Part shown: positions 40,487-46,947 of the stretch, one piece after another
Layout of the letters: the number at the start of each line of letters is the position of its first letter
How positions within the stretch are numbered: the stretch's first letter is position 1
NCBI RefSeq assembly: GCF_027912455.1
Contig: NZ_CP115446.1
Coordinates: 2,875,501-2,939,500 of the forward strand
Source of the DNA: Aurantiacibacter sp. MUD61
Lineage (GTDB): Bacteria; Pseudomonadota; Alphaproteobacteria; Sphingomonadales; Sphingomonadaceae
Direction: 5' to 3'
DNA length: 64,000 nt
Made by a program: the position numbers and the translations under genes
The notes under the pieces: model-generated
Databases searched by the model: none
The model's input: the letters and a program-made list of their open reading frames with translations, nothing else
Told to the model about the DNA's origin: nothing

Positions 40487-41539
40487 TCACCCTACGCCTG
40501 CGCGCGAGTCGGGGGAAGACCCTCCGCCCTCCCCTCCCTCGGCACCCCCGCCGCTCCCATCGCTCGCTCCATCGACCGCCGCAAAGCCCGCCTCCAGCGC
40601 CTCCTCGCTGTCGATCAGCCACCACTCCGCCAGCTCCGCCTCGAAGGCGCAGAGCTGCAGCACCTCGATCATGCACTTGCCGTCGAAATCGCCGCCCGCC
40701 AGCGCGTCGACTGACGGAGCACCCTCCGGCCGCGCCCGCGCCATCCGGTCGAGCCGGTGCCCCTGCCACATGCAGTCCCGATCGGTGAGAACCACCGCAT
40801 CATCCTCCTCCGCATCCACGCAATAGCCCCCGCAATCGGGGCACGGATCAGTGGGGGGTGTGACAGGTGTGACAGTGTCCTGATCACAATTCCCGGCTCC
40901 CTCTTTCGGCCCAGCCTGAGCGCCCCCAATCCGTTCGTCCTGAGCTTGTCGAAGGGCGATTAAACCATCCGCGGCGAGTGACGCATCCAGAGACCTGATG
41001 TCCTCCCCCCGCTCCAGCGCCTCGATCTGGTCATCCAGCAGCTCCGCCGCCGCGACCAGTTCGGCATCCTGCGCCATCCGGTCGAGCCGCGCGAGATGGG
41101 CGAGCAGCAGCCTGTCCGAATAGCGCCGCCGCATCCCCACCTCCTCGCCATGGTAATAGACGCTCTCCTCCACCCCGTTGATGGCGCGATCCGCCAGCTC
41201 CGTCTCCGCCACCACCCGCGCCGCGAGCAGCGCCGCATCCCAGGCGCGCGCAAACCCCGCATACCGCCGCCGCGCGCGATAGGCCGTCTGCCGAGCAACC
41301 CCCGCCCGCTTGCACGCGATGGAGACATTGCCCATCACCTGCATGGACTTGAGAAACAACGCCATCCGCACGGGGGTGAGAGCTTCGGTATTGCCGAAGG
41401 TGGGGGTGTGTTCTCCGGCAGCTTGCCCACCCCCAACCCCTCCCGTCTGCGGGAGGGGAGCGAGACTTGCTGAGCCTTCAGCGAAGCTAGTCGCAGCGGG
41501 GTGGGCCTGTGCAGCGTCGATAGTGGTCAGAGAATTCAT
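40487..41539 (-). CDS. HTH-containing (terminase-small-subunit-like) protein interrupted by repeats
   Basis: About 350 residues. A helix-turn-helix-like segment at 57-96 (ALFLKSMQVMGNVSIACKRAGVARQTAYRARRRY) and the helical region after it resemble small terminase or regulator proteins found singly in sphingomonads. Two repeat elements are translated in frame: the type B palindrome gives residues 12-39 and a type C arm gives LRQAQDER at 195-202. A CPDCGGYC pair may bind a metal. The C-terminus is low-complexity Gly and Ser. If translation starts at MALFLKS near residue 59, the first repeat is not translated. Function is unknown. Confidence 0.6.
   Translation of the reverse strand: MNSLTTIDAAQAHPAATSFAEGSASLAPLPQTGGVGGGQAAGEHTPTFGNTEALTPVRMALFLKSMQVMGNVSIACKRAGVARQTAYRARRRYAGFARAWDAALLAARVVAETELADRAINGVEESVYYHGEEVGMRRRYSDRLLLAHLARLDRMAQDAELVAAAELLDDQIEALERGEDIRSLDASLAADGLIALRQAQDERIGGAQAGPKEGAGNCDQDTVTPVTPPTDPCPDCGGYCVDAEEDDAVVLTDRDCMWQGHRLDRMARARPEGAPSVDALAGGDFDGKCMIEVLQLCAFEAELAEWWLIDSEEALEAGFAAVDGASDGSGGGAEGGEGGGSSPDSRAGVG
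40857..40880. repeat. 24-bp repeat, copy 2 (inside a coding sequence)
   Basis: This stretch matches that at 1512-1535 at 22 of 24 positions. Here it is translated on the minus strand as part of QDTVTPVTP in the HTH-containing protein. Confidence 0.5.
40934..40957. repeat. Type C repeat arm (TTCGTCCTGAGC family)
   Basis: TTCGTCCTGAGCTTGTCGAA with a following GGGC is identical to the arm at 41629-41652. It lies inside the HTH-containing coding sequence and is read in frame there. Confidence 0.75.
41425..41506. repeat. Palindromic repeat, type B, copy 2
   Basis: An 82-bp relative of the element at 33048-33130, with the same outer GCCCACCCCC/GGGGTGGGC ends and inner GGGAGGGG hairpin. It overlaps the N-terminal coding part of the HTH-containing gene. 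Confidence 0.85.
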
Positions 41540-41628
41540 TCGGTGCGTCCTCGCATGGGTTCGTGTGAACCGCGCAGGGAGGCACAGTGCTGGGGCTGTA
41601 GGAAAGGGGAAATCAGTCCCCTCGTCCA

Positions 41629-41713
41629 TTCGTCCTGAGCTTGTCGAAGGGCGACAGCGCCAACGCCGTTGGCCTCTGGCCCTCTACGAGTCCAACAAGC
41701 TCAGGACGAACGG
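41629..41713. repeat. Type C palindromic repeat, full copy
   Basis: The left arm TTCGTCCTGAGCTTGTCGAA (41629) and the inverted right arm ACAAGCTCAGGACGAA (ending near 41711) enclose about 45 bases that include a CAACGCCGTTG hairpin. A single arm recurs at 40934. Confidence 0.8.
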
Positions 41714-41740
41714 AGGTTGTCGCGGTCAAAGCATAGTCGC

Positions 41741-41766
41741 CACCCCCGCGAAGGCGGGGGTCCAGC
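41741..41766. repeat. Type D short palindrome
   Basis: CACCCCCGCGAAGGCGGGGG followed by TCCAGC forms a short GC-rich hairpin of the CCCGCGAAGGCGGG type that is common between genes in many Proteobacteria. Confidence 0.65.
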
Positions 41767-41788
41767 TACTTTTGACAACGCGAAGCAT

Positions 41789-41866
41789 GCCCACCCCGCT
41801 GCGACTAAGCCAGCAAGCTGGCAAGTCTCACTCCCCTCCCGCAAGCGGGAGGGGTCGGGAGTGAGC
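41789..41866. repeat. Palindromic repeat, type B, copy 3 (inverted, diverged end)
   Basis: An inverted copy of the type B element, starting GCCCACCCCGCTGCGACTAA and carrying the CTCCCGCAAGCGGGAG hairpin. Its far end (TCGGGAGTGAGCC) has diverged from the canonical GGGTGGGC. It marks the edge of the AT-richer FRG-DUF262 segment. Confidence 0.75.
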
Positions 41867-42052
41867 CACTCAAAGAGCCGCCACCGCCACCCGCGCCGCT
41901 TTTCTCCGCCGACTGCTGGCGAAGTGGTACATTTTTACCCTCCTACATGAGCCCAGTGCAAATAATGGACTTATTATTTCAATCAAATTCTTCGCGGCTT
42001 TCGCTTGCAACCCATAAGCGAAGGCAACTAAGGTCTTTTATAGTATGAGAAA

Positions 42053-42865
42053 ATGCGGGGGAGTGGATTGCCAAAAATTCAAGCCGATGAACCGGAGAGC
42101 CTCAGTGAGCTTTTGACTTCTGTCGAAGCCTATCAAGCTGAGCGTGAAGTCGTGTGGTATCGCGGCGTAAACAATGTCGCTCATGACCTTACCCCATCGA
42201 TTATCCGGCTCACTAAGAAGCCCACCGAAAAAGAAGTTGTCGAACTAGAAAGTGCTATTTTCTCGGCATTTTCGCAGCGATCCCCTCCGTTTGTCGAAAA
42301 AGACTTCCCGACGTCTTGGCGAACGCTGTTCTTTATGCAGCATTATGGCATTCCTACGAGACTTTTGGATTGGTCAGAGAGTCCCTTCGTCGCGTTATAT
42401 TTTGCGCTTTCAAATGTTGAGCGCACAAATGCTGGTGTCCCAAAGAAAGATGTGGCGGTTTGGATGTGCGATCCGATCGGTTGGAATCGGGGTGCGCTGA
42501 GCCACATCAGTTATCAAGGTGGTATTCTTGATGAACAGTGCGAAGAGGTAAAGAGCTACGAACCGAGCGTGAAACACGATCACCGTTGGACGATGCCGGT
42601 AATGCTTCACGGTACCCACAATTCTGCGAGAATCGTAGCGCAGAGAGGCGTCTTTGCGCTATTTGGCAAGGGTTTGAAGTCGATGGAGGATGTCAGCAAA
42701 AGCGACGCATTTGCCGATGATGTCCTTCGCAAAGCGATCATTAGAAAGGATCGGGTCGATGCCTTTCTGAATTCACTTTTTCAGAAAGGAATCACCGAAA
42801 GCGTGATATACCCTGATCTTCAAGGCCTAGCATTAGAGATAAGGCGAAAGTTCGGATATCTATGA
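42053..42865 (+). CDS. FRG-domain protein
   Basis: A 270-residue soluble protein of the FRG family, named for its Phe/Tyr-x-Arg-Gly motif: WYRG at 35-38. Other family parts are QHYGIPTRLLDWSESPFVALYFA at 96-118, ARIVAQRGVFALFG near 192-205, and the closing IYPDLQGLALEIRR at 252-265. The biochemical role of the domain is not established; such proteins often occur in bacterial accessory and defence regions. Base composition is lower in GC than the neighbours. The stop overlaps the DUF262 start by four bases, so both proteins are made together. Confidence 0.85.
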   Translation: MRGSGLPKIQADEPESLSELLTSVEAYQAEREVVWYRGVNNVAHDLTPSIIRLTKKPTEKEVVELESAIFSAFSQRSPPFVEKDFPTSWRTLFFMQHYGIPTRLLDWSESPFVALYFALSNVERTNAGVPKKDVAVWMCDPIGWNRGALSHISYQGGILDEQCEEVKSYEPSVKHDHRWTMPVMLHGTHNSARIVAQRGVFALFGKGLKSMEDVSKSDAFADDVLRKAIIRKDRVDAFLNSLFQKGITESVIYPDLQGLALEIRRKFGYL

Positions 42866-43989
42866 GTAGCGTTCTCAAAATTGACCAACACCAAACGCGC
42901 ACGCTCAAATGGTGGAATTCAAGGCGGGAAAAAATCGACTTCGATCCGCCATATCAGCGGAAGGGGCGACTTTGGTCCGACCAAGATAAAGCGTACCTCA
43001 TCGACTCGATCTTGAATGGATTTGATATTCCAAAGCTTTATTTGGCCGATTTTCAATTTGGCGAGTCTGATTTGAACGCCAGCCGACTGCCTTACGCGAT
43101 TATTGATGGAAAACAGCGTCTCGAGGCAGTCTTTGATTTTTTCGACAATCAACTTGTATTGGCGAAAGATTTTGTTTGGAGAGAGAACCCAGAATTAAAT
43201 TTAGCCGGACTAAGCCTGAAGGATTTATACGCAAAATATCCTGACGTCGCAGAAGAGTTTGAGAACGCTAATCTCACGATTATGAGCGTCTTTACCAACG
43301 ACGAAAGGTTGGTGAATGATCTGTTTGTTCGCTTGAATAGAAGTAAGTCCTTGACCGGTGCGGAAGTTCGGAATGCTATGGTCGGACCAGTCACCGACGT
43401 GATCAGAGAGCTTACTACCCATTCGATCTTCAAGGAGACGATCCGGTTCAGTACAAAACGTGCTGGAGACCACAACGCGGCGGCCAAAGTCCTGCTATTT
43501 GAATATGAGAAGGGTTTGACAAGCACGAAAAAGAAAGACTTAGACTCCTTCGCAGCAATTAGTGATGCCGACAAAGAACGATTAGAGTTAGCTGCCCGGC
43601 GAGTTATCGATACCTTCGACGAGATGTCGGAAGTGTTCATTCCAAACGATACATTGCTCGGTTCGGCGGGTGTGTTTCCAGTTTATTACTGGTTTGTCAG
43701 AAGTGTGACGTCTCTCTATCAAGACGAGATCCGAACATTTCTCCTAAATTTCGAAGAAAAACGGAAAGAAAATAGGGAGAAGGAACGCAAGCTGGGTGAA
43801 GGCAGAGGCGTCAGTGCTACCTATTCCCGATATGATACACTTAACAGAAGCACAAACGATCTAGGAAGCCATCGTGGCCGACTGGCAATTCTGCAGCGTG
43901 AATTTGCAATGTCAATGGAAGAACAATACGACGACTTCGATCAAGATGAAGCGTTTCGTTTTCAAATCGCAGAACGCAAGATGAAATGA
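42862..43989 (+). CDS. DUF262 (ParB/Srx-like) protein
   Basis: A 375-residue protein with an N-terminal DUF262 domain: FDPPYQRKGRLWSDQDKAYLIDSILNG near residues 27-53 and the nucleotide-handling motif YAIIDGKQRLEAVFDFF at 78-94 with DGKQR in place of the common DGQQR. DUF262 is the GmrS-type domain of GmrSD restriction systems, but the DUF1524 HNH nuclease that usually follows is not visible. The C-terminus (300-375) is charged and helical (KRKENREKERKLGEGRG). It may be a sensor or NTPase half working with the FRG protein; this is inferred from coupling. Confidence 0.85.
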   Translation: MSSVLKIDQHQTRTLKWWNSRREKIDFDPPYQRKGRLWSDQDKAYLIDSILNGFDIPKLYLADFQFGESDLNASRLPYAIIDGKQRLEAVFDFFDNQLVLAKDFVWRENPELNLAGLSLKDLYAKYPDVAEEFENANLTIMSVFTNDERLVNDLFVRLNRSKSLTGAEVRNAMVGPVTDVIRELTTHSIFKETIRFSTKRAGDHNAAAKVLLFEYEKGLTSTKKKDLDSFAAISDADKERLELAARRVIDTFDEMSEVFIPNDTLLGSAGVFPVYYWFVRSVTSLYQDEIRTFLLNFEEKRKENREKERKLGEGRGVSATYSRYDTLNRSTNDLGSHRGRLAILQREFAMSMEEQYDDFDQDEAFRFQIAERKMK

Positions 43990-44031
43990 CCAGCTAAGAC
44001 TGGTTCATCTCGTCTTACCCGCACTCTCGAT

Positions 44032-46947
44032 CTAATCCACAGCCTTCCGCGCCCTCTCAAGCATCGGTTTGAGATATTGGCCGGTGTAGCTCTTTGTTAC
44101 CTTGGACACTTCTTCGGGGGTGCCCTCGGCAACAATCTCACCGCCGCGCACACCGCCATCGGGGCCGAGGTCCAGAATCCAGTCCGCTGTCTTGATCACA
44201 TCCAGATTGTGCTCGATCACCACGACCGAATTGCCCTGGTCCACCAGCCGGTGGAGTACTTCGAGGAGTTTGCGCACATCTTCGAAATGCAGGCCGGTGG
44301 TGGGCTCGTCGAGGATGTAGAGCGTCTGGCCGGTGCTGCGTTTGCTGAGTTCCTTGGCGAGTTTTACGCGCTGCGCCTCTCCGCCCGATAGCGTCGTCGC
44401 CTGCTGGCCGACTTTCACATAGCCCAGCCCCACTTCGTTCAGCATGTGCATCTTGTCGCGGATGGGGGGCACGGCCTTGAAGAAGCCCTCTGCGTCCTCG
44501 ATCGTCATGTCGAGCACGTCGGCAATCGAGTGGCCTTTGAACTTCACTTCAAGCGTTTCGCGGTTGTAGCGTTTGCCGCCGCATTCCTCGCACGTCACGT
44601 AGACATCGGGCAGGAAGTGCATTTCGATCTTGATCAGGCCATCGCCCGTGCATGCCTCGCACCGGCCGCCCTTCACGTTGAAGCTGAAGCGGCCCGGCTT
44701 GTAGCCGCGCGCCTGGCTTTCGGGCAGGCCGGCGAACCAGTCGCGGATCTGGGTGAAGGCGCCGGTATAGGTCGCGGGGTTGGAGCGCGGAGTGCGGCCG
44801 ATGGGCGACTGGTCGATCTCAATCACCTTGTCGCAATATTCGAGGCCGGTGACCTTGTCGTGCGCGCCCGCCACCACGCGGGCATTGTTGAGCGTGCGCG
44901 CGGCGGAGGCATAGAGCGTGTCGATGGTGAAGCTGGACTTGCCGCTGCCCGAAACGCCGGTGATGCAGGTGAAGGTGCCCAATGGAATGCTGGCGGTGAC
45001 ATTGTTGAGGTTGTTCGCCCGCGCGCCATGAACCGTCAGCTTGTGGCCATTGCCCTTGCGCCGCTCTGCCGGGACCGCGATTTCGCGCCGCCCGGTGAGG
45101 TAATCGGCGGTGAGGCTCTTGCGGCTTTTCAGGATCTGCTTGAGCGTGCCCTGCGCCACCACTTCGCCGCCGCGCACACCCGCGCCGGGGCCGAGATCGA
45201 CGATATGGTCCGCCTGGCGGATGGCGTCCTCGTCATGCTCGACGACGATGACGGTGTTGCCGAGGTCGCGCAGGCGCTTCAATGTTTCGAGCAGGCGATC
45301 GTTGTCGCGCTGGTGGAGGCCGATGGAGGGCTCGTCCAGCACGTAGAGCACGCCGGAAAGGCCGCTGCCGATCTGCGAGGCGAGGCGGATGCGCTGGCTC
45401 TCGCCCCCGGACAGCGTGCCGCTGGTGCGATCGAGGTTGAGGTAATCGAGCCCGACATTGTTGAGGAAGCCCAGCCGCTCGACGATTTCCTTGAGGATGG
45501 CGCGGGCGATCTGGTTCTGCGTGTCGGTGAGTTTTTCGGGCAGGTTCTCGAACCATTCCAGCGCGTCCGACACCGAATAGCGCGTGGGCTGGCTGATGTC
45601 GGTGCTGTCGATCTTCACCGCCCGTGCCTTCTCGTTGAGGCGGGCGCCGTGGCACGTCTCGCACGGCTGCGCGGTCTGAAACTTGGCCAGCTCCTCCTGC
45701 ATCCACGCGCTCTCGGTCTGCGCCATGCGGCGGTTGAGATTGCCGATCACGCCCTCGAACGGCTTCTGCACCGTGTACTGCTTGCGCCCGTCCTTGAAGG
45801 TGAGCGGCACGCGCTTGCCCTTGGTGCCGTAGAGGATGATGTCCTGATGCTCGCGCGAGAGGTCCTTCCATGCGGTTTCCAGCGTGAAGCCGAATTCCTT
45901 CGCAAGGCTGCCGAGCACCTGCATGTAATAGGGCGACGGCGGGTTGGACTTGGCCCACGGCACAACCGCGCCCTTCTTCAGCGTGAGATCCTCGTTCGGG
46001 ACCACCAGCTGCTCGTCGAACAGCTGCTTTTCGCCGATGCCGTCACACGTCGGGCAGGCCCCCTGCGGCGCGTTGAAGGAGAACAGCCGCGGCTCGATCT
46101 CCTCGATGGTGAAGCCGGAAACGGGGCAGGCGAATTTCTCGGAGAACACGATGCGGTTGGGCGGCAGGCCTGCGCCTTTCATCGCGCCGCCACCCTCGGC
46201 CTCGTCCTCGCGCCCCGGCACCACGCCATCGGCGAGGTCGACATAGGCCAGCCCCTCGGCGAGCTTGAGCGCAGTCTCGAAGCTGTCGGCAAGGCGCGTT
46301 TCCAAGCCTTCCTTCACCGCAAGGCGGTCCACGACCACTTCGATGTCGTGCTTGAACTTCTTGTCGAGCGCGGGGGCCTCTTCGATCGCGTACATCTCGC
46401 CATCGATGCGCACCCGGGTAAAGCCCGCCTTCTGCCACTCGGCCAGCTCCTTGCGGTATTCGCCCTTGCGACCGCGCACCACCGGGGCGAGCAAATACAG
46501 CCGCGTGCCCTCGGGCAAAGCCATCACCCGGTCGACCATGTTGGAGACCGTCTGCGCCTCGATCGGCAGCCCGGTGGCGGGCGAATACGGCACGCCCACT
46601 CGCGCCCACAACAGGCGCATGTAGTCGTAAATCTCGGTGACGGTCGCCACAGTCGAGCGCGGATTGCGGCTCGTCGTCTTCTGTTCGATGGAAATCGCGG
46701 GAGACAGTCCATCGATATGCTCGACATCGGGCTTCTGCATCATCTCGAGGAACTGCCGCGCATAGGCGGACAGGCTCTCGACATAACGCCGCTGCCCCTC
46801 GGCATAGATCGTATCGAAAGCGAGCGACGACTTGCCCGAGCCGGAAAGCCCGGTGATGACGATCAGCGCATCGCGCGGCAGGTCGATATCGACACCCTTG
46901 AGGTTATGCTCACGGGCGCCTTTGACGGAGATTTTGGTAAGAGCCAT
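44032..46947 (-). CDS. uvrA: Excinuclease ABC subunit A
   Basis: UvrA, 971 residues, is the damage-recognition ATPase of nucleotide excision repair. Both ABC modules are complete. The first has Walker [17 protein letters not shown] near residue 31 and signature [15 protein letters not shown]; the second has [16 protein letters not shown] and [17 protein letters not shown]. Zinc-finger cysteines are in CPTCDGIGE and in [29 protein letters not shown]. An SOS box at 47030 lies about 84 bp upstream of the start, implying LexA control shared with recA. Confidence 0.98.

What the first reader, a model, noticed from the sequence alone, without database searches (positions are those of the whole stretch)
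42053..43989. Two-gene FRG-DUF262 operon, candidate undescribed defence system
Seen: two genes overlapping by ATGA, of lower GC than their neighbours, set between a repeat cluster and uvrA. The first has the FRG motifs WYRG and QHYGIPTRLLDW. The second has a DUF262 domain with DGKQR but no visible DUF1524 HNH nuclease, unlike GmrSD type IV restriction systems. Known: DUF262 occurs as a nucleotide-dependent sensor in restriction systems, and FRG proteins recur in accessory regions without an assigned activity. Inference: DUF262 may sense and the FRG protein act, forming a minimal anti-phage or abortive-infection pair.
Basis: partly seen in the sequence, partly recalled or inferred. Interest (0 to 1): 0.82.

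Follow-up and report, generated by a model that had tools for sequence, protein, structure and literature searches.

The report
FRG–DUF262 two-gene candidate phage defence
Two overlapping bacterial genes form a mobile pair, found in distant bacteria and in virus-derived contigs, that most likely stops viruses by letting a sensor protein switch on a partner enzyme in place of the usual DNA-cutting domain.

Summary
In detail: FRG (PF08867, 87 bits) and DUF262/GmrSD_N (PF03235, 51 bits) genes overlap by ATGA at 42862-42865, in a low-GC island next to uvrA. The pair recurs, FRG first, at 23 other distinct loci: bacteria of three phyla and viral contigs. Distances of the two proteins correlate (r = 0.87). 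Paired DUF262s group on one branch; 0 of 24 scanned (23 distinct) carry an HNH, whereas all 4 proteins of the sister clade do, shortly after the shared region. The simplest reading is an effector swap, nuclease for FRG. In 8 congeners the same uvrA slot holds other content, in 6 defence-linked, once DUF262+HEPN. A C5-methylase or Vsr is nearby in 8 of 21 pair loci against 1 of 53 FRG-only loci. No held paper contains both FRG and DUF262, but Frg is a proposed antiviral ART-superfamily effector (PMC9503650, passages) and a PADLOC candidate. Verdict: a new variant of DUF262-based defence. Neither function nor fold was tested: structure prediction never ran.

The parts
42053..42865 (+). FRG-domain gene, proposed effector (start may be TTG at 42068)
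   Evidence: PF08867 87.1 bits; PADLOC PDC-S15 174.5 bits; paired homologues 30-53% identical in five fetched loci
42155..42166 (+). WYRG motif; W35, R37, G38 unchanged in 23 of 23 aligned paired FRGs
42338..42373 (+). QHYGIPTRLLDW motif; Q96, H97, P101, R103, L104, D106, W107 unchanged in 23 of 23
42862..43989 (+). DUF262 (GmrSD_N) gene without a detected HNH or DUF1524, proposed sensor and switch
   Evidence: PF03235 51.4 bits only; PADLOC NsnA 99 bits and PD-T4-2_A 41 bits, both over the DUF262 part
42862..42865 (+). ATGA overlap of the two genes
43105..43119 (+). DGKQR, the nucleotide-pocket motif of DUF262; D82, G83, Q85, R86 unchanged in 23 of 23
   Evidence: motif role from PMC10952713
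41425..41866 (.). repeat cluster at the left edge of the variable slot
44032..46947 (-). uvrA, right edge of the variable slot, conserved in the genus

Best explanation
It is a horizontally moving two-gene anti-phage system, probably of the abortive kind. Shown here: the two genes are inherited together, and the DUF262 protein corresponds to a DUF262-HNH protein without its C-terminal HNH, with an FRG gene directly beside it. Inferred: the DUF262 protein keeps the sensor and NTP-dependent switch role described for its family (GmrSD, BrxU, SspE), recognises invading DNA or an abnormal modification state, and then activates the FRG protein. FRG, which the literature places in the ADP-ribosyltransferase superfamily, would then consume NAD+ or ADP-ribosylate a target, so that the infected cell stops before phage is released.
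For: Fixed pair: 24 distinct loci including the window, FRG first; in the 22 distinct loci measured the genes run from a 4-base overlap to 16 bases apart. 0 of 40 weaker DUF262 rows (38 distinct places) have an FRG in the held flanks, mostly 1.5 kb. Paired DUF262s on one branch, support 90/93; distance correlation r = 0.875, 0 of 10000 permutations. HNH in 0 of 24 scanned paired DUF262s (23 distinct) and in 4 of 4 of the sister clade. Alternative defence-linked cassettes in the same slot of congeners, including DUF262+HEPN. C5-methylase or Vsr within 6 kb in 8 of 21 pair loci against 1 of 53 FRG-only loci. Pairs next to phage repressor genes (Pfam) or an integrase read by eye. ART and NADase proposal for FRG: PMC9503650.
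Against: No experiment. The ART fold was not confirmed: no significant sequence match in the PDB, no profile match to the RES ART family, and structure prediction was never accepted. FRG genes often stand alone (62 FRG-only viral rows; a solitary FRG in this genome), so FRG does not need DUF262; and paired FRGs are not shown to have one origin (two label changes). The pair is rare: 5 of 398 genomes of the phylum including the window's, 2 of 369 in another class. 13 of 21 pair loci have no C5-methylase or Vsr within 6 kb of held DNA. The background rate of defence genes in other slots was not measured.
Confidence: 0.65

Rival explanations
1. Toxin-antitoxin or addiction module: FRG is a toxin held in check by DUF262, which stabilises prophages and islands; any phage effect is secondary.
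For: Two adjoining, mostly overlapping genes, mobile, of lower GC than the locus in 21 of 23 rows, often on viral contigs; FRG is a proposed ART effector.
Against: DUF262 keeps an unchanged NTP-pocket motif and is sister to nuclease-bearing restriction-type proteins; solitary FRGs are common.
Confidence: 0.15
2. Guard of a restriction-modification system: the pair watches the methylation or restriction state of the cell (as PrrC or RloC do; recalled) and fires when restriction is inhibited.
For: C5-methylase or Vsr near 8 of 21 pairs against 1 of 53 FRG-only loci; methylase directly upstream of FRG in L030, L031, L033 with no Pfam restriction enzyme among ten further neighbours tested; related DUF262-HNH proteins inside type III-like operons (L011, L277).
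Against: 13 of 21 loci lack such genes within 6 kb of held DNA; in the window's genome the only C5-methylase found is 1.4 Mb away; the 8 loci fall in three lineages, so they are not independent.
Confidence: 0.12
3. A non-defence accessory function (for example NAD or nucleotide metabolism, or stress response) that happens to travel on islands.
For: No assay shows defence; around some pairs (L034, L035, L164, L167) I recognised no defence gene by eye (these neighbours were not scanned).
Against: The genus slot filled by alternative defence-linked cassettes, the methylase enrichment, and the use of DUF262 in known defence systems.
Confidence: 0.08

Closest known systems
GmrSD / BrxU type IV restriction (DUF262 + DUF1524)
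   Same: DUF262 domain with the DG-x-QR nucleotide motif
   Different: No DUF1524 or HNH found; the proposed effector is a separate FRG protein
PD-T4-2 (DUF262 + HEPN, as listed in PMC10952713)
   Same: DUF262 protein with a non-HNH effector; a DUF262+HEPN pair sits in the same uvrA slot of congener G007
   Different: FRG instead of HEPN; P0002 matches PADLOC PD-T4-2_A with 41 bits over the DUF262 part only
Menshen (DUF262 protein + predicted OLD nuclease)
   Same: DUF262 protein; P0002 hits PADLOC NsnA with 99 bits over model positions 61-259 of 385. That NsnA belongs to Menshen is recalled
   Different: No OLD-like gene next to the window pair
PADLOC candidate PDC-S15 (FRG)
   Same: The FRG protein matches model PDLC04938 with 174.5 bits
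   Different: That it is a single-gene candidate is recalled from its name; here FRG travels with DUF262
DUF262-HNH proteins (L011, L170, L171, L172)
   Same: Sister clade of the paired DUF262s; the joint branch has support 97/95; homologous along most of the length
   Different: They have a C-terminal HNH and no FRG in the held flanks
DUF262 + SIR2 pair (Sinorhizobium americanum plasmid, L278)
   Same: DUF262 abutting a SIR2_2 gene, another NAD-using type of domain
   Different: SIR2 fold, opposite gene order, more distant DUF262

Membership tests
GmrSD/BrxU type IV restriction | DUF262 (GmrSD_N) domain with DG-x-QR | tested here: met
   PF03235 51.4 bits; D82, G83, Q85, R86 in 23 of 23
GmrSD/BrxU type IV restriction | DUF1524 or other HNH nuclease | tested here: not met
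   0 of 24 scanned paired DUF262 proteins (23 distinct) at E<=0.1
PD-T4-2 | HEPN partner | tested here: not met
   Partner is FRG, its only Pfam hit at E<=1
Menshen | adjacent OLD-like nuclease gene | tested here: not met
   Neighbours are a 380-aa ORF and uvrA (ORF list read by eye)
FRG family (PF08867) / PADLOC PDC-S15 | FRG domain above the Pfam cut-off | tested here: met
   87.1 bits against cut-off 25; PDC-S15 174.5 bits (PADLOC's own threshold not shown)
ART superfamily | ADP-ribosyltransferase fold and NAD+ use | tested here: inconclusive
   Literature statement only; no significant PDB sequence match, best E 0.47; no profile match to RES; fold prediction never accepted
anti-phage defence system | protection from phage | not testable with these tools
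   only genomic context

The most novel reading that the evidence does not exclude
FRG-DUF262 is a restriction system whose cutting arm has been replaced by an NAD+-using enzyme. DUF262 reads the modification state of DNA and, instead of cutting non-self DNA, triggers FRG to end the cell. In some lineages a C5-methylase directly upstream marks self (methylase-FRG-DUF262, once followed by Vsr), a restriction-modification-like operon in which abortive ADP-ribosyl chemistry stands in place of the restriction enzyme.
Probability: 0.22. Interest if true: 0.87.

Novelty: new variant of a known kind. Interest (0 to 1): 0.66.

Why it matters
DUF262 looks like an exchangeable sensor module (HNH, OLD-like nuclease, HEPN and SIR2 partners), and FRG is a common proposed effector whose chemistry is unsettled. 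A minimal pair with a nuclease-bearing sister clade at hand makes two questions directly testable: what FRG does, and how DUF262 tells its effector to fire.

Tried and rejected
Structure prediction: every request (33 attempts; A5 once, otherwise A4) was answered 'machine is busy', so no fold search was made. PDB sequence search: no significant match for either protein (best E 0.47 and 0.38). hhalign of FRG against RES (20 sequences) and three unrelated families: probability at most 0.2% for each, so it says nothing for or against ART membership. I first read the 338-aa partner in L111 as SIR2 by eye; Pfam gives only 17.3 bits, below the cut-off of 24.5, so it is not counted. A dedicated methylase partner: the scan with the L030/L031/L033 methylases kept the best 80 of 246 loci, and FRG-DUF262 stood only beside the three query loci; six relatives (L201, L202, L204, L205, L206, L209) instead precede a long ORF that looks GHKL-like by eye (not tested). 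E. coli genomes: no match with the L046 pair. Phage records: weak DUF262 matches only, none over 80% of the query. Promoter scan: none on the coding strand, 2 found against 2.2 expected over both strands. Not done: the neighbourhoods of the 321 plasmid records with FRG hits and of most DUF262 plasmid hits (only three opened); the slots of 4 of the 12 same-genus genomes; the rate of defence genes in random slots; a PADLOC scan of the G001 and G002 slot proteins.

Full report
What is there. Two open genes lie at 42053-42865 and 42862-43989 and overlap by ATGA. The first is an FRG protein (PF08867, 87.1 bits), the second a DUF262/GmrSD_N protein (PF03235, 51.4 bits); neither has another Pfam match at E<=1. 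Their two 1-kb bins have the lowest GC of the 64 bins in the window (48.5% and 45.0%). The own genome holds one DUF262 match and two FRGs; the second FRG is solitary, behind what reads as guaA by eye.

The pair recurs. The closest plasmid match, in Hymenobacter volaticus, has the same two genes in the same order (44% and 49% identical). I counted L029 with L107/L164, and L009 with L008, because their scores agree. FRG comes first in each. In 23 measured rows (22 distinct loci), taking the DUF262 start nearest the FRG stop, the genes run from a 4-base overlap to 16 bases apart; in L032 and L029/L107 an earlier in-frame start would give a longer overlap. The pair has lower GC than its locus in 21 of 23 rows. 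The viral FRG scan kept only the best 80 of 128 loci.

Frequency. In 398 genomes of the phylum 50 have any match to the paired-DUF262 profile (E<=0.001), but only 5, the window's included, exceed 330 bits; the next has 104. Those 5 have FRG upstream, and none of 40 weaker DUF262 rows (38 distinct places) has one in the held flanks, which are 1.5 kb for most; one further row (L047) has an FRG 2.3 kb away. With E<=1e-40, 2 of 369 genomes in another class (G368, G612) and 2 of 396 in the order (the window's and G1035) hold the pair; G577, G713, G748 and G109 match without FRG. Two paired-type FRGs, L028 and L036, lack DUF262 because the contig ends there.

Linked descent. With 23 pairs, the DUF262s lie on one side of a branch (support 90/93, 92% of 200 bootstrap trees). 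The FRG tree shows the same two groups of 10 and 13 pairs and mostly the same subgroups. It does not show a single origin of paired FRGs: the two groups sit in an unresolved fork with eight solitary FRGs, one solitary FRG (L041) joins the group of 13, and two label changes are needed. Pairwise distances correlate at r = 0.875, with 0 of 10000 permutations as high. Adjacency alone can produce this; it does not prove physical interaction.

Effector swap. In the DUF262 tree the sister clade of the paired proteins (L011, L170, L171, L172) has a C-terminal HNH in 4 of 4 cases, as has a related protein on a Rhizobium plasmid (L277). Of 24 paired DUF262s scanned (23 distinct; L169 was not scanned) none has one. 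The paired-family model (359 positions) aligns to the sister proteins up to position 347 or 348, sister residues 323-338; their HNH matches begin at residues 368-377. So the paired protein corresponds to DUF262 plus linker without the nuclease, with a separate FRG gene beside it. That the HNH was lost rather than gained is inferred; the tree was rooted at the midpoint only. Elsewhere DUF262 abuts SIR2 (L278, SIR2_2 88 bits) or HEPN (L162).

Defence context. I fetched the slot next to uvrA in eight of the twelve same-genus genomes. None of the eight has the pair. They hold a CAP12/Pycsar TIR protein (G001), a partial match to D12 methylase (G002), a type II methylase with a weak DpdB-like protein (G004), DUF262+HEPN (G007), a PD-T4-10_B-like protein (G010), HEC-03A+HEC-03B (G012, 49 and 581 bits), a Tle1-like hydrolase with a SocA/Panacea protein (G011), and what reads as an IS transposase by eye (G006). 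I count the first six as defence-linked: four by PADLOC matches, G001 and G002 by Pfam only. No background rate was measured.

Methylase link. A C5-methylase or Vsr lies within 6 kb of FRG in 8 of 21 pair loci, against 1 of 62 FRG-only viral rows, or 1 of 53 after removing near-copies (Fisher p = 1e-4; viral pairs alone 6 of 14), using the own genome's methylase and Vsr as queries. The 21 leave out the window (its genome's only C5-methylase match is 1.4 Mb away), L169 and L174. A first version with profiles built from the pair loci, and including Eco29kI, gave 8 of 21 and 3 of 62. Some loci have short flanks, and the 8 fall into three lineages (L030-L033; L008, L040, L165; L005), so the p-value overstates independence. 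In L030, L031 and L033 a C5-methylase directly precedes FRG, and ten further neighbouring ORFs had no Pfam restriction enzyme at E<=0.01; in L165 the order is Vsr, methylase, Eco29kI, FRG, DUF262. Close to L006's pair (about 4-7 kb upstream) stand methylase-like genes read by eye and a MutH-like protein. Pairs also stand near phage repressor genes (L043, L031) or an integrase read by eye (L008).

Mechanism. PMC10952713 (passages read) describes DUF262 as an NTP-binding domain that senses or switches in GmrSD, BrxU and SspE, and names DUF262 systems without DUF1524 (PD-T4-2, Menshen, Dazbog). PMC9503650 (passages read) places Frg in the ART superfamily as a potential antiviral effector; one sentence lists it among biochemically characterised NAD+-processing enzymes, another says it might be a NADase. 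Joining these with the swap gives the model: DUF262 senses, FRG acts on NAD+ or ADP-ribosylates a target. The cue and the FRG reaction are inferred. My own checks of the ART claim were empty, and the fold could not be predicted.

Known or new. No paper of the held open-access library contains both strings FRG and DUF262 (also with other term sets). Subscription papers and supplements were not searched, and a paper that I recalled as a likely earlier source on Frg is not held. PADLOC has the FRG side as candidate PDC-S15 and gives partial DUF262 matches for the other gene. I therefore call it a new variant of a known kind: DUF262-based defence with a different effector.

Noticed in passing
window 41425-44032 and G-handle loci L156-L163: The slot downstream of uvrA is variable in this genus, with different content in each of 8 congeners examined, in 6 of them defence-linked.
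   Followed up: yes
L002:1390-2178 (own genome C1:1211445): A second, solitary FRG gene just after what reads as guaA.
   Followed up: partly
L176 (own genome C1:1484205): C5-methylase + Vsr + MvaI/BcnI-type restriction enzyme, the only C5-methylase match of the genome.
   Followed up: partly
L201, L202, L204, L205, L206, L209: C5-methylases related to those beside FRG-DUF262 directly precede a long GHKL-like ORF (780-800 aa in five of six, cut by the contig end in L202; by eye), possibly another restriction-like operon.
   Followed up: no
L162:5932-7726 (G007): DUF262 (NsnA 220 bits over nearly the full model) + HEPN pair in the same uvrA slot.
   Followed up: partly
L172:1264-3315: DUF262-HNH next to a PAPS-reductase-like gene (PF01507, 37.5 bits), possibly a DNA-modification-linked system.
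   Followed up: no
L278:4983-6885: DUF262 gene abutting a SIR2_2 gene on a conjugative Sinorhizobium americanum plasmid.
   Followed up: partly
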